This document shows, piece by piece, positions 7,613-61,800 of a stretch of 64,000 bases of DNA (the stretch's first letter is position 1; the number at the start of each line of letters is the position of its first letter). Origin of the DNA: Bradyrhizobium sp. CCBAU 53340 (GTDB taxonomy: Bacteria > Pseudomonadota > Alphaproteobacteria > Rhizobiales > Xanthobacteraceae). The DNA lies in contig NZ_CP030056.1 of assembly GCF_015291645.1 (NCBI RefSeq), forward strand, positions 806,001-870,000, read 5' to 3'. Position numbers and translations under genes: made by a program. The notes under the pieces were generated by a model that worked only from the letters and a program-made list of their open reading frames with translations, was not told where the DNA came from and made no database searches.

Positions 7613-12334
<4,722 letters not shown>

Positions 12335-12477
12335 TGTATTCCTCTTTCGACATTGGGTGCACTCCAACTAGCCAGTTCGCATGCGGGTTCTTGCCGCCGT
12401 AACAGCACGTGGAGTTTGTCGACGTCCTTCTAGAGATCGAGCGCCTGCAGGCAATGTGCCACCGCCATTAGGTTCGC

Positions 12478-12675
12478 CTACGGCGAAAGCTTGTACGCTG
12501 GGTGCCTCGAAAATGCGCTCTTGAATGGATCGAGTTTCTTTGTTTGCACGAGCCTGGTGAGCCTGGTGAGCAGTAACGCGACGAATGAGATCGATTGCGC
12601 AAGTGCTGAGGCCGCCTTGGCGTCAGCCTCGACTGCGAAGACCGCGCCGACCGAAGCCAGCCCAATCCAGAGCAT
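12478..12675 (-). CDS. Possible small membrane protein
   Basis: 65-aa frame with a long weakly hydrophobic N-terminal half (LWIGLASVGAVFAVEADAKAA followed by a second hydrophobic run ending in LLLTRLTRL) and a basic tail. No family is recognised and no strong ribosome-binding site stands out. It may be non-coding; it is reported because the hydrophobic pattern is better than in the overlapping frames. Confidence 0.25.
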   Translation of the reverse strand: MLWIGLASVGAVFAVEADAKAASALAQSISFVALLLTRLTRLVQTKKLDPFKSAFSRHPAYKLSP

Positions 12676-14250
12676 GCACGTGACAAAAAATGCACGAGAT
12701 AGTCATGCATAGTTGCATGATGTAACAGGTTTAAACTGGGAATCTCCCGGATGACGATGCCAAGCGGTTCACTACTGCGCGCAGGTGCCGGCGCGTGCGT
12801 GCCGGTACAGACCCAGCAAATTCGCTCGGTGAACGCCAAGGCATCGCGCGCCCAATACCACGCCGCATCGTCTCGTTGAGACCGCGTTGCGGATCACATT
12901 ATCGGAATCGACATTCACCTCGATAAGCAGGTGAATTCGATCCTGGTCAGCGGATCGACAAGATCGCCCTCGCTGGAGTTACCGAGCGTGAATCGGTTGG
13001 GCGTCTGAATGCCCATCATTGTACTCTCTGAGTTCGACTGAATTCGTGGGCGGCGCTTCCGCGCTTGCTCGTAAGGCATTTCAGCCCCATCACATGCCGC
13101 ATGGACGAACGTCGCCATGGTGTTCTCAATACCGAATTGCTGCGCACTCTGGTCGAGCAAGCGTTAGGTGGTTTCCCCTTGCAGCCATTTTGTAGAGGCA
13201 ATAGCCCTTGCTAGCCTGCTCGTCGTCCATTCTCGGCCAACCGGCCGGCATCGAAATGCCCGCGACGTTAGCACTTGTCTGGATGCGGTGGATTGTCTTG
13301 AGCCGCGAGGTACTTGGCCCTTACATTTGGCCCGCATTTGCCGGAAAGATTGCCTCGGGTTGGCCTCCAGCGGCCGCCATGATAGCCCGTCGCGCCGAGC
13401 GAGATCATCGACAGCCCCGCTTCCTTAAGCGGCGGTTTGCGATGATCCGCATAAAGCTCTCCAGGCAGCAAGTGCACTTGAGCCCGTGCATACAGATTAC
13501 GCAGATGCGCAGCTTGGTCTTAAGAGCTCAGGCAGTACGGCGGCTACGAGCTGTCAAAGCCCGAGGCTCGCTGCAGCGGGACGGCATAAGTTGTGAAAAC
13601 TTCGCCGCGTGATGCTCTGGCGCCTGGACTGAATGTCGAAACGCGCCGACGTTGTTCGAAGGACTTTGCAAGAAGTTGACCATCGTAGCTTGGCACTCTC
13701 CTCTACATGCATGCCCGGGAGCTCGCGAGGGTACAATCTCATGGTCGAAGCATTCTTCTCCCGCGCCTCATTGTCGCGGGAAGCGGTCAGATGTGGCGCT
13801 CATCACGAGAATGCCCAACGCTCAAAAACATCATCGCCGACCGCCACACGGCCGCCCCGTTTCCGTCGGAACGCAAACGCGCCTACTGTCTGGAACGTGC
13901 CAAACTGTTGGCGAACGCGACGGTACCTTTAGTGACACGGTCCGCAATGCGGCGCATAGGCGATCTGCTGAACAGCACGACGTGCTGCTCAGCAATCGGC
14001 CCGAGTTCCTCCGCCGCATTGAAGGAATGCTCCCGACGCGATGCTTCCGGTTCCGAGAAAGCGATCGAGGGCCAGCTCTAGCGAGTGCGGCGCCGGTTTG
14101 CGCGATCGGACTACAGCGACCCGAGCCGCTGTCGATAGGCCGCGGTGCATCTCGCGAAAAACACGGTTCCGATCCGGAAGAACTGCGCGCGAACTGGCAC
14201 GGCACCACACCGAAGCTCGGGTTATCGAAAGGTAGATCCAGGCCGCGAAA
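12676..14250. other. 1.6-kb stretch without a recognised gene
   Basis: Many short frames overlap on both strands, none with motifs I recognise. A 244-codon plus-strand frame at 13652-14386 runs antisense into glnK and has a composition (Arg, Pro, Ser rich) typical of shadow frames. Probably decayed sequence. Confidence 0.4.
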
Positions 14251-54943: not shown

Positions 54944-56293
54944 GTGTGCTGCAGACAGCGGAAGGAGTTCAAATGAACTAAGACCGATGGTGAAGCTGCG
55001 AGAAAGATGGGGGCGGGCCCCCGAGATCAGCTTTCAGGGGCGGGTCTCAAACCAATCCGAGCTGCTGCGGTAAAGAGCTGTGGTGGTGAGCGTCGGATCA
55101 GAAGTTCGGAATATACCGAGCAGGTGAGTGTCCGAAAGACGAACGAAAGTGAACCCTCCTGAGACGCGTCGTTATTAATTCAAGTGTCGTCAAAACCAGG
55201 ACCGTCTCGTCAACCTGGGACACGTCCGCCAGATGCCTGACGACTGGGCGGGCGGCGACCGGCGTAGAGGGGGCGTGAGTCGGACACAGGCTTTCGCGTG
55301 GAACTGCAGGAACCAGGCTCTTGATGCCAAGGGAGAAGCGCAAGCGGTGCCAACCGCGAGGCGGGAGTACCGATGCAAGAGACTGGGGCGGACCGATCCG
55401 TAGGAGCGTTGAGGGCCCTGTAATGGGGACGGAGCAAAGGGATCGGGTCAGGTAGTCGTACTCTTGGACCAACTGGAAACAGGATGACTTCGAACAGTGC
55501 GATAAACAAGCCGTTCTCGATTGAGAAGCGGCGAGTGTACGAAGCGTACAAGGCGGTCAAATCCAATCGCGGAGCGGCTGGAGTGGACGGACAGACCTTC
55601 GAGATGTTCGAGAAAGACCTTGCAGGGAATCTCTACAAGATCTGGAATCGGATGTCGTCGGGGGTGTACTTTCCACCTCCGGTGCTCGCCGTCTCCATTC
55701 CAAAGAAGACCTGCGGCGAAAGGACTTTAGGTGTGCCCACTATCAGCGATCGGATGGTGGTCAAACGGATGATTGAGCCGGAACTGGAATCCATCTTCCT
55801 GCCGGACTCTTACGGTCACAGGCCAGGAAAATCGGCTCTGGACGCCGTGGGCGTCACGCGTCAGCGGTGCTGGAAATATGATTGGGTCCTGGAGTTCGAC
55901 ATCAAAGGACTGTTTGACAATCTCCCGCATGATCTTCTTGCTGAAGGCGGTCCGGAGACACGTGAAATGCAAATGGGCGCTGCTCTACATCGAAAGATGG
56001 CTGACGGCATCAAGGGAAAAGGACGGGAAGCTCGTTGAGCGGATCCGCGGAACCCTCAAGGGGCGTGATCAGCCCAATACTGGCCAATCTGTTCCTGCAT
56101 TATACGTTTGATCTCTGGATGGCGCGGACACATCCCGACCTTCCTTGGTGTCGGTATGCCGATGACGGACTGGTGCACTGCCGGACCGAGCAAGAAGCAG
56201 AAGCCATTAAGGCGGAGCTTCAAGCGAGGCTGGAAGTGTGCGGACTTCAGATGCATCCGACGAAGACGCAGATCGTTTACTGCAAGGACAACT
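54944..56293 (+). mobile_element. Group II intron, 3'-truncated, inside IS630
   Basis: Starts with GTGTG (54944-54948), matching the GUGYG 5' end of group II introns, directly after IS630 coding sequence. About 540 bp of structured non-coding DNA (ribozyme domains I-III) precede an intron-encoded reverse transcriptase. Right side ends in the RT gene near 56293; maturase end and ribozyme domains V/VI are missing, so splicing is impossible. Junction bases GACAACTCACGG fit both RT and IS630, suggesting a microhomology deletion. Confidence 0.8.
55484..56293 (+). pseudogene. Group II intron reverse transcriptase, truncated and frameshifted
   Basis: LtrA-like RT: RRVYEAYKAVKSNRGAAGVD (RT0/1), SSGVYFPPPVLAVSIPKKTC then ERTLGVPTISDRMVVKRMIE (RT2), LEFDIKGLFDNLPHDLL (RT3, catalytic Asp), and, after shifts near 55945 and 56060, RGVISPILANLFLHYTFDLW (RT4) and WCRYADDGLVHCRTEQEAEA with the YADD active site (RT5). 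Ends at IVYCKDNSR; thumb, maturase and endonuclease parts are missing. Confidence 0.88.
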
Positions 56294-56763: not shown

Positions 56764-57862
56764 TTAGAATCCATACGGCCGTTCGGCCCAGCGCAGAAGC
56801 ACTCGAGCATCCCGATTGGGCAAGATGACACGCTGATCGCGGAGGCCCTTGGCGATGGTTTGACCAACCTCCGGCTCGACGCGATTGCCATGCGTAATCA
56901 GAAAAAACCAGCCGAATGGAACGCCGACTTCACGGTCGATCGCTTCCACGCGGTCCATCAAGAAATGGACGGACGCACCTCCCACGCCAAGCCTCTCGTC
57001 CGGCAGATGAAGGGGACGCGGCACAAATCCAACCTCGCGCGTGCCTTTGTGGTCGTAGTCGCAAATATCGAGGGCCCAGTGCGCGTAGACGCGTTCAGCC
57101 GAGGCGCTCGATTCGTCCCAGTCCTGGAAGAAACGGTTCTCCCGCGGTACGAACTCGAACCAGTCCGGCACCAGTTCAAGAAACGGCGTCTCGGTTGTGC
57201 CCTCCCGTGTCACTTCACGCACCGCACGACGTTCCATCTCCGGCCGCTGCGCCTCGCGCCTCTCGCGCTCGAGTCGGGCGCACCGCGTAAGGTAACTCCG
57301 AACGTAGATGACGCTGCTGCCCGCGCGCCCAAGCATCCGATAGAGCGGACCCGCGATGACCTTGTTGTCGGACATCTCTTCGTGCGTGATCCATGACGGA
57401 TCGAGTAATTCGTCCTTGCCCCAAGGGCGGTACGTCGATTGACGATCGGCCCCGCACGCGATTCGACTTCCCGGCCGAGACGGATTTGCACATAGTCCGC
57501 CGCGCCCGATCCAGTCGGCGCGAAGGCGTAGACCGTCTTACCGCGCCATTCAGAAGTCTGAAGATCGCTCTGGCGCAATCGCGTCCAGAGCGCGCCGATG
57601 TCGCCGTTGTTCTTGGCAAGCTCGGCTTCCATCCACGACCGGTATTCTGCGATCCGTGTCCCGTCAGCGGCGATCACCGAGCGTCTGTCGCGCCAATACT
57701 GGTCATCGATGGCCGCCGTCGAAAATGGGAATCCAGCAAACGTCTCTGTCAGCGCGGCCGCCAGCGCCGTTTCGTTAGCTCCGATCGGAAGACGGGCGAG
57801 GACCGCCTCGATCGTGGCGGGATCGGGCAGTCGTGCGGAACATTCTCCGGAGGCTCATCCAT
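56764..57862 (-). pseudogene. Unknown gene coupled to the second AbiE pair, frameshifted
   Basis: Restored ~365 aa, starting MDEPPENVP at 57862. A shift near 57825 leads to LPDPATIEAVLARLPIGANE then WRDRRSVIAADGTRIAEYRS and KTVYAFAPTGSGAADYVQIR; a second near 57390 to DNKVIAGPLYRMLGRAGSSV then TPFLELVPDWFEFVPRENRF and PFGWFFLITHGNRVEPEVGQ. I recognise no family; no membrane segment or ATPase motif. The start overlaps the stop of the truncated AbiEii gene (ATGGATGA), so it belonged to that operon. On the same strand, past the inserted IS630/intron/pabBA block, comes the SMC-like ATPase; originally the two may have been neighbours. Confidence 0.6.
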
Positions 57863-58079
57863 GACTTGATCCCATCATCGGAGCCTGTTTCGCCGCGCGC
57901 TCGATCTCTTCCATTGACGCCAGGATGTGCTCGAACCGAAGCCCCGCCGCAAGATCATTGGCGTCATGTTCGCATAGTCACGCGCGAGCGCGTCGATCGG
58001 CGCACGAGGCCGGTTCGCTGTCGTTAAGAAAAGATCGAACTTCTCGCCGGATGACCTCCTTGCAAGCTGCGCTGCTCAC
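57855..58079 (-). pseudogene. AbiEii-type toxin with its middle deleted
   Basis: Begins with GTG overlapping the DUF6088 stop: MSSAACKEVIRRE, then (shifted) FDLFLTTANR, the usual first ~25 residues of AbiEii/DUF1814 proteins that pair with DUF6088. It jumps straight to a C-terminal end (ALARDYANM, then shifted NDLAAGLRFEHILASMEEIE). The NTase core is absent. So a deletion of about 220 codons plus two shifts killed the toxin, while the adjacent reading frames remain translationally coupled. Confidence 0.65.
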
Positions 58080-58760
58080 GAGCCATCCTCCGGTATGGCG
58101 TCGTCACGCTCGAGCAAGGGCCTAAGGAAATCCTGCATCCAGATCGGCATAGCTGACAGACCTGCGCGAAGATCGTCGCGAATCACCCTTCCATGCTGCG
58201 GATTTGCAAACAGTCTGTTCAGGAGGTTCACTATTGGCTGTCGATCATACCTACTTGTCATCATGTCCTGCATCCAATAGAGCGCCTGCACGACGCGCAT
58301 GCCTGGACGTCCGGCCCAATAGAGACGGCTGGGCGCTGCCGACTTGAAATGGATGACCTGCTTTCCAAGGATGATCGGCTTCAGGCGGGCGTCGATCAGG
58401 ACCTCGATGCGCGATGGGACGGCCCTGGTGAAGCCGAGATCATTCGCGGTAGTCATCCCGTCAACCACGACGCGGGCTTGGTCGCGGCGCGCCACGGCCT
58501 TGATGACGGCGCGATAGTCGGGGATTCCCAGCTTGCCCGTGAAATTGCTCTTTCGCGGCCGGTCGTAGAGGCCACGATCGAAGCGGCGTAGTTCGCCAGC
58601 CACGACCAGGCGCTGCAACGCCTTGTCGACGGTCGCACGGCTTCCGAAGTCGGCGAAATTGTCCATACCTCTGTGGGTGCCGCGTCGATGCGGGCAATGA
58701 GCCGCGATCGGAGGTCCGGGGTCGGCTCCTTGAGCGTGTCCGAAATATGATGTAAATTTC
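58076..58760 (-). pseudogene. DUF6088 (AbiEi-like) antitoxin with N-terminal frameshift
   Basis: Main frame 58076-58666 (MDNFADFGSRATVDKALQRL then GELRRFDRGLYDRPRKS, ARRDQARVVVDGMTTANDLG, IIHFKSAAPSR-type strand) matches DUF6088 proteins, winged-helix antitoxin/regulators partnered with AbiEii toxins. The expected N-terminus (SDTLKEPTPDLRSRLIARID then AAPTEVWT) is upstream in another frame, joined by a shift near 58675. Start codon of the native gene is not clear. Divergent from the wHTH-NTase-PP2C operon. Confidence 0.72.
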
Positions 58761-58845
58761 GGTCGGAAGCAACTCAGCTGCGATGGAATCTTTGACTGGA
58801 ACTCGCCCGTTTTGAGCGGTCAAAGGACCTAAGACCTCGGACCAG

Positions 58846-58875
58846 TTGACGGACACCCGTCTGCACGCATACTGT
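58846..58875 (+). promoter_or_regulatory. Promoter of the wHTH-NTase-PP2C operon
   Basis: -35 TTGACG (58846-58851), 18-bp spacer, -10 TACTGT (58870-58875). The -10 overlaps the palindromic operator that follows, and the start codon lies 22 bases downstream, so the leader is very short. Confidence 0.6.
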
Positions 58876-58897
58876 CCTCAGTCCTAGGACAGAGGAC
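58874..58897. promoter_or_regulatory. 24-bp palindromic operator abutting the start codon
   Basis: Half-site GTCCTCAGTCCT is followed by AGGACAGAGGAC; the 24 bases are symmetrical except for one A/A pair in each arm. It covers the end of the -10 box, the likely transcription start and the Shine-Dalgarno (AGAGG) and ends directly before the ATG at 58898, ideal for autorepression by the encoded winged-helix protein. Confidence 0.7.
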
Positions 58898-59470
58898 ATG
58901 CGCGCGGAACCCATGAAAAGTCAGGATATTGTCGTCCTGCTGAAGCTCGTGTGCTTGCAGGATCATGAGCACGCCGGCGGGGTAGGCCCCTTTGGCCAAG
59001 ATGGCGAAGACCCATACTCGGTGCGGGGACTCGAGACGTCCCTCGGAATCAGCAAAACCGAAGTCGCCGCCTCGATCAAGCGCAGCCTTGCATCGGGTAT
59101 GGCAATTAAGCGCCCGATGACGAGCCGTCCCGATCCCAATCGCAGGAACCTGCGCGACTTCATCACATACGGCCTGAAGTTCGTTTTTCCGGCAAGCCCG
59201 GGTCCCATGCAGCGCGGCATGCCAACGGCATTCGCCGCCCCGGTCCTGAAGGACTTACTCTACAGCGCGGGTAGCCTGATTCATGTTTGGCCTTATGCGC
59301 GCGGCCGCGAGATGGGGCAGTCCGTCGCGCCGCTGTTCAAGACTGTGCCGAAAGCCGCCGAGAGGGATGATCGCCTCTATGCCTATCTGGCTCTCGTCGA
59401 CGCAATACGGCTCGGCAATCAGCGCGAAGCGAGTCTCGCGGCCAACTTGCTCAAGGAGAGACTAGGGTGA
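58898..59470 (+). CDS. Winged-helix regulator-like protein, first gene of an NTase/PP2C operon
   Basis: 190 aa, ATG right behind the palindrome with AGAGG five bases upstream. I see a helix-turn-helix in the first third (LLKLVCLQDHEHAGG... YSVRGLETSLGISKTEVAAS then IKRSLASGMAIKR), then a polar, partly helical domain (RDFITYGLKFVFPASPGPMQ, RDDRLYAYLALVDAIRLGNQ). No named family recognised, but the pairing of a wHTH protein with an AbiEii-like NTase is that of type IV/NTase toxin-antitoxin modules, so it may be antitoxin and autorepressor. Its stop overlaps the NTase start (GTGA). Intact. Confidence 0.65.
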   Translation: MRAEPMKSQDIVVLLKLVCLQDHEHAGGVGPFGQDGEDPYSVRGLETSLGISKTEVAASIKRSLASGMAIKRPMTSRPDPNRRNLRDFITYGLKFVFPASPGPMQRGMPTAFAAPVLKDLLYSAGSLIHVWPYARGREMGQSVAPLFKTVPKAAERDDRLYAYLALVDAIRLGNQREASLAANLLKERLG

Positions 59471-60167
59471 CCATCCAGGGGCATCTCAAGGAAATGCTGA
59501 AGACAGTCGCCGGCGCACTCGGCGATGAGCTGCGTGCGCGATTGGTCTTCGTCGGAGGCTGCACAACCGCTCTCTACATAACGGATCCGGTCACCCTCGA
59601 AGGAGTCAGATCGACAGATGATGTCGACCTGATCGTGGATCTCGTCGGCTTCCCGGAGTGGGCAAAGCTGGTGGATCAGTTGCGAACGCAGGGTTTTTCC
59701 GAGACACCCGAGGACAATGTCATCTGTCGGATGAAGCTTAATGAACTCAAGGTCGATTTCATGCCCGACGACGAGAAGATCCTCGGTTTCAGCAATCGTT
59801 GGTACGCAAAGGGCATCGAAACAGCTGTTGAGACGCCCCTGGATGATGCCATTACGATTCGTCGCCTCACGCCGCCCTTGTTCATCGCAACGAAGCTGGA
59901 GGCTTATCGCGGAAGAGGTAGTGGGACCTTATCGGCAGCCGCGACGCCGAGGACATTCTCCTGCTCGTCGACGGGCGGGAGGAACTGCTTGACGAAGTTG
60001 CCGCCTCCGATGCAGACATTAGCTCATACATTGCCGAGCAATTCGGAGCGCTGCTCGCAGATCGCGACTTCGATCATTTCCTCGAAGGAAATATTCGCGG
60101 CCCGGTGGGGCGTGCTGACATTGTTCGCGACCGATTCGTTGCATTGAGCCAGTTGGGCAACGGCTGA
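59467..60167 (+). pseudogene. AbiEii-like nucleotidyltransferase with one late frameshift
   Basis: GTG start overlapping the wHTH stop. NTase core: ARLVFVGGCTTALYITDPVT with the GG motif, STDDVDLIVDLVGFPEWAKL with Asp-x-Asp, and LNELKVDFMPDDEKILGF with the third Asp. FIATKLEAYRGRG is the conserved Lys helix. Near 59925 a one-base change shifts the frame; the native C-terminus (DLIGSRDAEDILLLVDGREE then SSYIAEQFGALLADRDFDHF) is in the next frame and ends at 60167, directly before the PP2C start. Such enzymes transfer NMPs or nucleotides to tRNA or proteins in toxin systems. A single indel: recent loss, or a sequencing error. Confidence 0.8.
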
Positions 60168-60168
60168 T

Positions 60169-60955
60169 ATGGCGTTTGCAATCCAATGGCACAGCCAGCA
60201 GGGAACGAGGACGACCGACAACCGGGATTGCGCCGGGATCGGCATACGCCAGACGTCGGCCCTCGCCATAGTGCTCGACGGTTCGACCTCTGGAGCAGAG
60301 AGCGGAGCCTTTGCCCACGAGATTGCGCGTCGGATGGTCGATTGGTACGTGTCGACCGACGAAAACATCACCGCGGGGGTTCTCACAGCTCAACTTCGCG
60401 CGACGCATGCTAAACTGTCGAAACAGTTTCGGAGGGATTCGGCGAGTTACCTTCTGATGCATGTCGGCGCTGCTCAAACAGCTCTCGTTCTGCACGCAGG
60501 CGATTGCCTGGTTGGCCGTCAGGCGCCGGCGGGTCCGATGTCCTGGCTAACCCAGCCGCACACGCTTGCCAACTCGGTGTCGCAGATGACGATCGGCGAC
60601 CTTGCGAACGATAGCGGTCGTCATCGCCTCACGCGAAGCTTCCGCTCGCGAGAATTCGTCGAGCCAGCTTTCTGTTCAATTGCGCTGGACGACACGCCAG
60701 TGCTCGTGGCGACTGACGGGTTCTGGGCCGAGCTGGATCATCGCCAGCAGAGCGCTTTCATCCATGGTCGCGTTCCGGAGAACGCCGGAGAGAGACGACC
60801 GCAGCGTACTTCAGATCACACGACTCGGAAGAGGCGGGTTGTCCAAGGTCTCACGGAGCGAGCCTCCTCGCAGAATCTACATGGTCTGCAAGCGCAAAAT
60901 TGTCGCAAATTTTGCCCCTCTCGATCGAGACAAATTTCGTGGCGTTGAGACGTGA
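60169..60955 (+). pseudogene. PP2C-type Ser/Thr phosphatase, frameshifted near the end
   Basis: Begins one base after the NTase stop. PP2C motifs: GTRTTDNRDCAGIGI, ALAIVLDGSTSGAESGAFAH (metal Asp-Gly), LMHVGAAQTALVLHAGDCLV, RLTRSFRSREFVEPAFCSIA and VLVATDGFWAEL (metal Asp). Near 60780 the frame changes; the last metal motif (ERDDRSVLQITRLGRGG) is in another frame, ending at 60955. It would be a small cytoplasmic phosphatase of ~262 aa. A phosphatase in an operon with an NTase suggests control by protein phosphorylation, but no kinase is seen in the window. Confidence 0.72.
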
Positions 60956-61064
60956 CAGATTTTGTGTGGAATTGACCTGGCATGGACGAGTTTTTGGCTA
61001 ACGAGATTCTAAATTTCTTCTCTTACGGTGCCCGCGGGCAATTGAAGACCGTGGAGTGTTCTGG

Positions 61065-61394
61065 ATGTTTGCCAAGTTGATGCTTCGCGTTCGTGGTCAG
61101 CTGATTGCGGGTTTTGCAGCGGAATGTGCGATCATAGCGCTCTCATTCGGATATGCGGTTTTCGCAGTTAGCGGAGTCTCAACCACCGTCAATGAGATGG
61201 TGGGTCTTCGTACGCCGGTTGCGATCGCCAGTGCCGAGTTGGCCGGCAATACCGTAGTCTTTGTCGCTTCCGAGAAGGCTTCGGCTAACCTAGAGTCGGT
61301 TGCCTGCGCCACTGAGCAGATGAGCTCATCAGTGACCGAAATCGGCCGCCAAGTGTTGGATGCCGCGCGCATTGCGAGCGCCGCGGTTCGATAG
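61065..61394 (+). pseudogene. Methyl-accepting chemotaxis protein with the middle deleted
   Basis: N-terminal membrane anchor MFAKLMLRVRGQLIAGFAAE with CAIIALSFGYAVFAVSGVST is joined directly to a piece of the signalling domain (ASANLESVACATEQMSSSVT then EIGRQVLDAARIASAAVR). The sensor, second membrane helix, HAMP and most of the hairpin are missing. The end runs into an IS110 fragment at ~61385. Confidence 0.75.
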
Positions 61395-61800
61395 GTGCCG
61401 TCGGCGACATTCGGCGCTTTGCCGATCCGACCAGGCTGGTGAGCTACCTGGGGCTGAACCCGAGCGTCAGGCAGTCTGGCGAGGGCCCCTACCATGGCAG
61501 GATCACCAAGCAGGGCTGCGGCCAAGCTCGCGGAATGCTCGTCGAAGCAGCATGGGCTGTAGCCCGTTCGGCGGGACCGCTGCGTGCATTCCTTCAACGT
61601 GTCGCTGCACGACGCGGCAAGCACATCGCGGCAGTCGCGACGGCGCGGAAGCTGGCGATGATCATCTGGCATATGCTGACCAAGAGCACTGACTAAATCT
61701 GGACGAGGCCGGCCCTGCTGGCGCACAAGTTCCGGAGCATCGAACTGCGCGCTGGACTACCCACCAGCCATGCCAAGCGTGGATCGGCCTATGATACAAC
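61385..61800 (+). mobile_element. IS110-family transposase fragment
   Basis: C-terminal Transposase_20 part: IGAVGDIRRFADPTRLVSYL then GLNPSVRQSGEGPYHGRITK, ARGMLVEAAWAVARSAGPLR and KHIAAVATARKLAMIIWHML. The DEDD N-terminal domain is absent and a stop follows TKSTD. It directly continues from the MCP fragment. Confidence 0.85.

What the first reader, a model, noticed from the sequence alone, without database searches (positions are those of the whole stretch)
58846..60955. Three-gene operon wHTH - nucleotidyltransferase - PP2C phosphatase, tightly coupled
Seen: one strand, GTGA overlap between genes 1 and 2, one-base gap between 2 and 3, promoter and operator in front. Known: AbiEii-like NTases are toxins, usually with a wHTH antitoxin; some NTase toxins (MenT3) are silenced by serine phosphorylation. 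Inference: the phosphatase may set the toxin's phosphorylation state, a three-part toxin or defence module I cannot match to a described system. Genes 2 and 3 each have one late frameshift here.
Basis: partly seen in the sequence, partly recalled or inferred. Interest (0 to 1): 0.75.

Follow-up and report, generated by a model that had tools for sequence, protein, structure and literature searches.

The report
Broken toxin trio with own phosphatase
A worn-out copy, on a peanut-nodule bacterium's plasmid, of a widespread but unstudied three-gene unit (DNA-binding protein, toxin-like enzyme, phosphatase) that may include the phosphatase thought to switch such toxins back on.

Summary
The operon is real. 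Its three products match PADLOC's uncharacterised candidate defence system PDC-M21 A, B and C (E 9e-77 or better). In the window B and C are frameshifted, and the same bases stand in five plasmid records and L017, so this is no read error. Relatives are often intact. On a 95-row tree C (PP2C) is confined, but for one uncertain row, to one clade whose A has a long linker. In a B-led sample 24 of 24 intact B have A upstream, 5 have C. C is broken or absent in 27 of 70 loci with intact B, and intact in 0 of 8 with broken B. A palindrome with a -35 box precedes A in most loci. B keeps the threonine that is MenT1's auto-phosphorylation site; reversal there was said to need an unknown phosphatase (PMC7205606).

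The parts
58846..58851 (+). -35-like box TTGACG
   Evidence: TTGAC starts 32-39 bp before the operator core in 58 of 66 loci with that core, 2.0 expected
58873..58898 (+). operator: 26-bp palindrome TGTCCTCAGTCCT/AGGACAGAGGACA
   Evidence: conserved in relatives
58913..59470 (+). gene A (PDC-M21A): winged-helix DNA-binding protein, intact; likely autorepressor and antitoxin (ORF opens at 58898)
   Evidence: PDLC04515 5.6e-82; AlphaFold model pLDDT 93.4, pTM 0.90
59467..60147 (+). gene B (PDC-M21B), first piece: AbiEii/MenT-like nucleotidyltransferase, homologous for residues 2-155; Thr50 in RSTDDVD corresponds to MenT1 T39
   Evidence: PDLC04516 9.2e-77; relatives hit PF08843 and MenT1 8an4
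59922..60167 (+). gene B, second piece in another frame
   Evidence: PDLC04516 positions 155-231, 8.5e-26
60169..60948 (+). gene C (PDC-M21C): PP2C-type phosphatase, in frame with its family for residues 1-207; later part out of frame, DNA homology to 60882
   Evidence: PDLC04518 1.3e-82
58076..58666 (-). neighbour, not part of the operon: AbiEi-like antitoxin (DUF6088), divergent
   Evidence: PADLOC AbiEi 9.2e-86, PF19570 5.1e-25

Best explanation
The locus is a decayed copy of PDC-M21, a toxin-antitoxin-like defence module. A is a winged-helix protein that binds the palindrome before its own gene and represses the operon. A also binds the nucleotidyltransferase B and drives it to phosphorylate itself on the active-site threonine (Thr50 in RxTxDxD), which silences it, as reported for MenA-MenT pairs. 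C, a PP2C phosphatase whose metal ligands are conserved in its family, removes that phosphate and re-arms B. C may dock on the long linker of A that is found where C is found. B, once active, would act on tRNA or another nucleic acid and stop growth during phage attack. Shown here: gene order, families, conserved operator, conserved Thr, dependence of C on B, tie between C and the linker, defence-like neighbourhood. Inferred: repression, autophosphorylation, the role of C, the docking, the target, the trigger.
For: PADLOC matches of all three proteins. B relatives match PF08843 AbiEii (23 of 52) and their profile finds MenT1 8an4 (E 4e-4), whose RFTRD aligns with B's RxTxD; the paper places the phosphoacceptor T39 there. 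All 95 B rows have Thr or Ser at that place: 94 Thr, 1 Ser (L096 missed the search pattern and was read by eye, CHTDDVD). C rows keep D20, D37, D183 and G184 in 39 of 39, D210/D211 in 90% or more (one row, L017, is the broken copy). C is not intact in any of 8 loci with broken B, against 43 of 70 with intact B: Fisher p 0.001, near-copies not removed, kinship not corrected (L017 scored broken by hand). B stays open with C broken or absent in 27 of 70 loci, so C is not needed to hold B down, as expected of an activator. All 42 measured rows with C have an A linker of 37 residues or more; of 27 rows with a linker of 24 or less, 22 lack C and 5 could not be judged. Linker length follows presence of C after correction for kinship: p 0.0006 over 79 rows, 0.015 inside the clade, 56 rows. 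Operator and -35 conserved. 24 of 24 intact B in the B-led sample have A upstream. Literature: antitoxin-induced autophosphorylation silences MenT1 and, by the same model, MenT3 (PMC11375011); its reversal 'required an unknown phosphatase', and the phosphatase PstP did it only slowly (PMC7205606).
Against: No step of the phosphorylation cycle is tested. The threonine is as conserved where C is absent (15 of 15 in the clade Thr; 21 Thr and 1 Ser outside) and may be kept for catalysis. A hit no AbiEi profile in Pfam or PADLOC; MenA families were not tested apart. The linker tie points to A as the partner of C. Inside the clade 15 tree rows have a long linker without C. Independent contrasts on well-supported branches were only 3-4, too few to test.
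Confidence: 0.42

Rival explanations
1. C acts on A. Phosphorylated A (long linker or N-terminal helix) holds B or the operator; C dephosphorylates A and so frees toxin or promoter. The kinase would be B or a host enzyme.
For: C and the linker of A go together. The linker is the least confident part of the A model (residues 21-30 at mean pLDDT 67).
Against: My first candidate site, Ser3 of MKSQD, fails: Gly with C present in L041 and L080, Ser without C in many loci. I did not search the linker systematically for another acceptor.
Confidence: 0.2
2. C reverses nucleotide addition, not phosphorylation: B attaches a nucleotide to a protein (A or a host target) and C removes it, a writer-eraser pair.
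For: SidD removes AMP from a protein (PMC3656104, only a search listing seen; that its fold is PP2C-like is recalled). B is a nucleotidyltransferase.
Against: The characterised MenT relatives modify tRNA (abstracts). C resembles Stp1-type phosphatases.
Confidence: 0.13
3. C is a restraining partner (antitoxin-like), as the phosphatase PfpC is in the kinase-kinase-phosphatase system KKP.
For: KKP is a tripartite toxin-antitoxin defence system in which the phosphatase neutralises (PMC11341870, abstract, section 9).
Against: In 27 of 70 loci B stays open with C broken or absent, and the two-gene relatives outside the clade show no C except L134. No kinase gene was seen in the operon.
Confidence: 0.12
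4. The grouping is accidental; PP2C is a passenger gene.
For: C is absent from most of the wider A-B family sampled by B (19 of 24).
Against: Same strand and tight spacing from alpha- to gammaproteobacteria, down to an 8-kb Acinetobacter plasmid. 0 of 8 loci keep C after B breaks. PADLOC models all three as one candidate.
Confidence: 0.03

Closest known systems
PADLOC candidate system PDC-M21 (A, B, C)
   Same: All three proteins match its models
   Different: Here B and C are broken. No paper naming PDC-M21 was found (0 papers; main texts of open PMC papers only, no supplements or preprints), so its mechanism is undescribed as far as I could see
MenAT / AbiE nucleotidyltransferase toxin-antitoxin systems
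   Same: B has the RxTxDxD core and PF08843 matches 23 of 52 relatives; toxin-like gene follows a DNA-binding gene
   Different: A hits no AbiEi profile; the third gene is a phosphatase, which MenAT and AbiE lack (recalled)
KKP kinase-kinase-phosphatase (PMC11341870)
   Same: Three-part module with a phosphatase; phosphorylation-based toxin control and phage defence
   Different: KKP's toxin is a kinase pair and its phosphatase is the antitoxin; here no kinase gene is in the operon and loss of the phosphatase is tolerated

Membership tests
PDC-M21 (PADLOC) | matches to component models A, B and C in one operon | tested here: met
   B and C frameshifted in the window, intact in relatives. PADLOC's own system rule was not seen
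AbiEii/MenT nucleotidyltransferases | NTase core with RxTxDxD and Pfam AbiEii profile | tested here: met
   RxTxDxD in 93 of 95 rows, one with Ser (L129), one with Cys for Arg (L096); PF08843 in 23 of 52 members, not in the window protein itself
AbiE system | antitoxin of the AbiEi (COG5340/DUF6088) family | tested here: not met
   A hits no AbiEi model in Pfam or PADLOC up to E 1
Type VII (toxin modified) toxin-antitoxin | antitoxin-dependent modification of the toxin | not testable with these tools
   Only the acceptor Thr is conserved
PP2C/PPM phosphatases | metal-binding aspartates | tested here: met
   D20, D37, D183 invariant in 39 rows, D210/D211 in 90% or more; last pair lost in frame in the window copy. 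That these are the metal ligands is recalled
KKP | two Ser/Thr kinase genes with the phosphatase | tested here: not met
   The operon holds wHTH, NTase and PP2C only; no kinase is annotated next to A-B-C in the loci
anti-phage defence system | measured protection against phage | not testable with these tools
   Only neighbourhood evidence

The most novel reading that the evidence does not exclude
PDC-M21 is a self-contained, reversible phospho-switch for a nucleotidyltransferase toxin: antitoxin-driven autophosphorylation off, operon-encoded PP2C on. C would be the dedicated phosphatase that work on MenT toxins called for, recruited once together with a docking linker in the antitoxin.
Probability: 0.33. 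Interest if true: 0.82.

Novelty: new variant of a known kind. Interest (0 to 1): 0.62.

Why it matters
Toxins of the AbiEii/MenT family are widespread, and two (MenT1, MenT3) are reported silenced by phosphate in the active site. One study states that reversal needs an unknown phosphatase and found the cell's own Ser/Thr phosphatase slow and unspecific (PMC7205606). A natural operon that already carries a PP2C beside such a toxin, with an intact copy in a legume symbiont, makes that question directly testable. It would also give a mechanism to a candidate defence system that so far has only a number.

Tried and rejected
Ser3 of MKSQD in A as the target of C: suggested by 12 sequences, rejected on the loci. 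Two other conserved threonines in B (positions 33, 34) mark the clade, not C itself. Independent-pairs test of linker against C: too few supported pairs; a phylogenetic regression on the same quick tree was run instead, so both rest on one approximate tree. AbiEii partner of the minus-strand AbiEi: no PADLOC hit in 57912-58075, left open. Orphan C genes over all genomes: not counted.

Rows left out: loci with under 1 kb after B and no intact C, two-gene loci L010, L012, L013, L015, and loci with B absent were not counted; L017 (identical to the window) was scored C-broken by hand because its later frame differs; by coverage it had passed as intact (then 1 of 8). Near-copies were kept in that table. 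The B-led sample overlaps it (L145 and L148 look like L080 and L095).

The neighbourhood control is 16 arbitrary chromosome stretches of 10 genomes, while many test loci are plasmid-borne; part of the contrast may be mobile DNA as such. Families overlap heavily (many HsdS models, each in 2 members), so 182 against 2 is not a count of systems, and how many of the 129 proteins matched was not shown.

Full report
What is there. The window lies on contig 2 of an 8.44-Mb genome. Its 58700-61000 stretch is 100% identical to five plasmid records of peanut-nodule Bradyrhizobium, one of which may be the window's own, and 57501-61500 is identical to L004 (one of those plasmids) and to L017, a contig of another strain. 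Gene A (58913-59470) is intact. Gene B is open from 59467, but its family match continues in another frame from 59922 to 60167. Gene C opens at 60169 and leaves its family's frame after about residue 207. Since several records share the same bases, the damage is fixed. This is the only copy of A, B and a strong C in the genome.

What the proteins are. PADLOC's candidate system PDC-M21 matches A at 5.6e-82, B at 9.2e-77 plus 8.5e-26 for its second piece, and C at 1.3e-82. Pfam sees no family in A and none above cut-off in B; C just misses the PP2C_2 cut-off (23.8 of 24 bits). Across relatives, 23 of 52 B proteins match AbiEii (PF08843) and 10 of 58 A proteins a MarR-type winged helix. The profile of ten B relatives finds a nucleotidyltransferase-like protein (5uvd, 2e-7) and MenT1 (8an4, 4e-4) among solved structures. 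The C protein of L005 finds Stp1 (2pk0, 2e-4); two BURRH hits rank higher by short repeat matches. The A model (185 residues, pLDDT 93.4, pTM 0.90) has an N-terminal helix, a less certain linker and further helices and strands (reading these as a winged helix is mine).

How common and how linked. In 219 genomes of the order, only the own genome and G116 hold strong A, B and C. Three other genomes have weak A hits, and the next C hit is 9e-14, which I take as generic PP2C; in G116 most of C lies on another contig. Among plasmids (tblastn, E up to 1e-5) the window's A finds 124 records, and B and C of L005 find 117 and 89. A-B-C was annotated in line in Sinorhizobium, Agrobacterium, Vibrio, Pseudomonas, Caballeronia, Acinetobacter, Stenotrophomonas and Oceanisphaera plasmids. 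A-B without C was seen in Cylindrospermopsis, Deinococcus, Hymenobacter, Mitsuaria, Aquabacterium, Calothrix and Oscillatoria (states). Samples led by B, 385 class and 398 phylum genomes, partly overlapping, gave 24 intact B loci outside the own genome; 24 of 24 have A directly upstream (22 over the full profile, L160 and L162 in part), 5 have C. One locus elsewhere, L064, has an interrupted A with intact B.

History. On a tree of 95 B proteins (quick method), one clade of 64 rows (SH-aLRT 98) holds 38 intact and 8 broken C, 15 rows without C and 3 unknown. Of 31 rows outside, 25 lack C, 5 are unknown and one, L134, has C on a long uncertain branch. Holding all long-linker rows together is not rejected (AU p 0.524). 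The simplest story is one gain of C with a longer linker in A, then repeated loss: presence of C needs 12 changes, the linker 2; the tree itself cannot tell gain from loss. Linker length and presence of C stay linked after correction for kinship, modestly inside the clade (p 0.015).

Dependence. In the A-led long-linker sample (78 evaluable loci, near-copies kept): B intact with C intact 43, C broken 10, C absent 17; B broken with C intact 0, C broken 3, C absent 5. So far C does not outlive B, while B often outlives C.

Control region. Palindromes before A score 9.5 on average against 4.7 in shuffles. The core GTCCnnGGA(C/T) stands in 66 of 80 long-linker loci and 0 of 32 others; ATTCnnGA(A/T)T in 21 of 32 others and 0 of 80 long-linker loci. 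TTGAC starts 32-39 bp before the core in 58 of 66 (2.0 expected). In the window the operator abuts the -10-like hexamer and reaches almost to the start, which suits repression by A; that A binds it is inferred.

Defence setting. 129 neighbour proteins from 37 loci with C matched 182 PADLOC families at 1e-20; 127 proteins of 16 arbitrary chromosome stretches matched 2 (mad3 in 5 members, PDC-S45 in 1) (caveats in Tried and rejected). Named cases: Gabija-like genes beside L005, Ppl beside L008, and in Mitsuaria (L132, a two-gene locus) A-B sits between hsdS and hsdR of a type I restriction system.

Mechanism and literature. Arrowsmith et al. 2024 (PMC11375011; abstract, passages and discussion seen) report that MenA1 makes MenT1 phosphorylate itself at T39, which blocks it, and extend the model to MenT3 S78; the word phosphatase does not occur there. 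PMC7205606 (passages) says that reversal needs an unknown phosphatase and that PstP needed 12 h, unspecifically. PMC11541572 (passages) calls dephosphorylation an attractive possibility. B has the same acceptor, Thr50, in the RxTxDxD core. KKP (PMC11341870; abstract and section 9) shows that a phosphatase can be part of a tripartite system, though there as antitoxin. PMC12988326 (passages) describes PDC systems as unvalidated candidates found by guilt-by-embedding. No paper on PDC-M21 or on an NTase-PP2C toxin system was seen in the listings, or in passages of PMC13092281; the library lacks preprints and most subscription papers, and supplements could not be read.

Verdict. A decayed member of a listed but, as far as I found, undescribed defence candidate. 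The window copy itself is probably inactive apart from A.

Noticed in passing
window 58076-58666 (-): AbiEi-like antitoxin gene diverging from the operon; no AbiEii partner recognised in 57912-58075. L019 holds related DNA (12319-13118) near its intact A-B-C.
   Followed up: partly
L132:214-7800: Two-gene A-B lies inside a type I restriction system, between hsdS and hsdR, in a Mitsuaria plasmid.
   Followed up: partly
L014 (7742 bases): An 8-kb Acinetobacter johnsonii plasmid devotes three of its eight annotated genes to A-B-C.
   Followed up: no
upstream of A in 112 loci: Operator half-sites switch from ATTC-type to GTCC-type between the two-gene and the long-linker clade; L011 has C but an ATTCG-type palindrome.
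   Followed up: partly
window 55484-56038 (+): Fragment of a reverse transcriptase; transposase-like ORFs nearby were noted by eye only.
   Followed up: no
phylum sample, family f227 (e.g. L153, L154, L163-L168): 16 of the 32 matching genomes belong to one unnamed family of small genomes, f227; how many of that family were searched is not shown.
   Followed up: no
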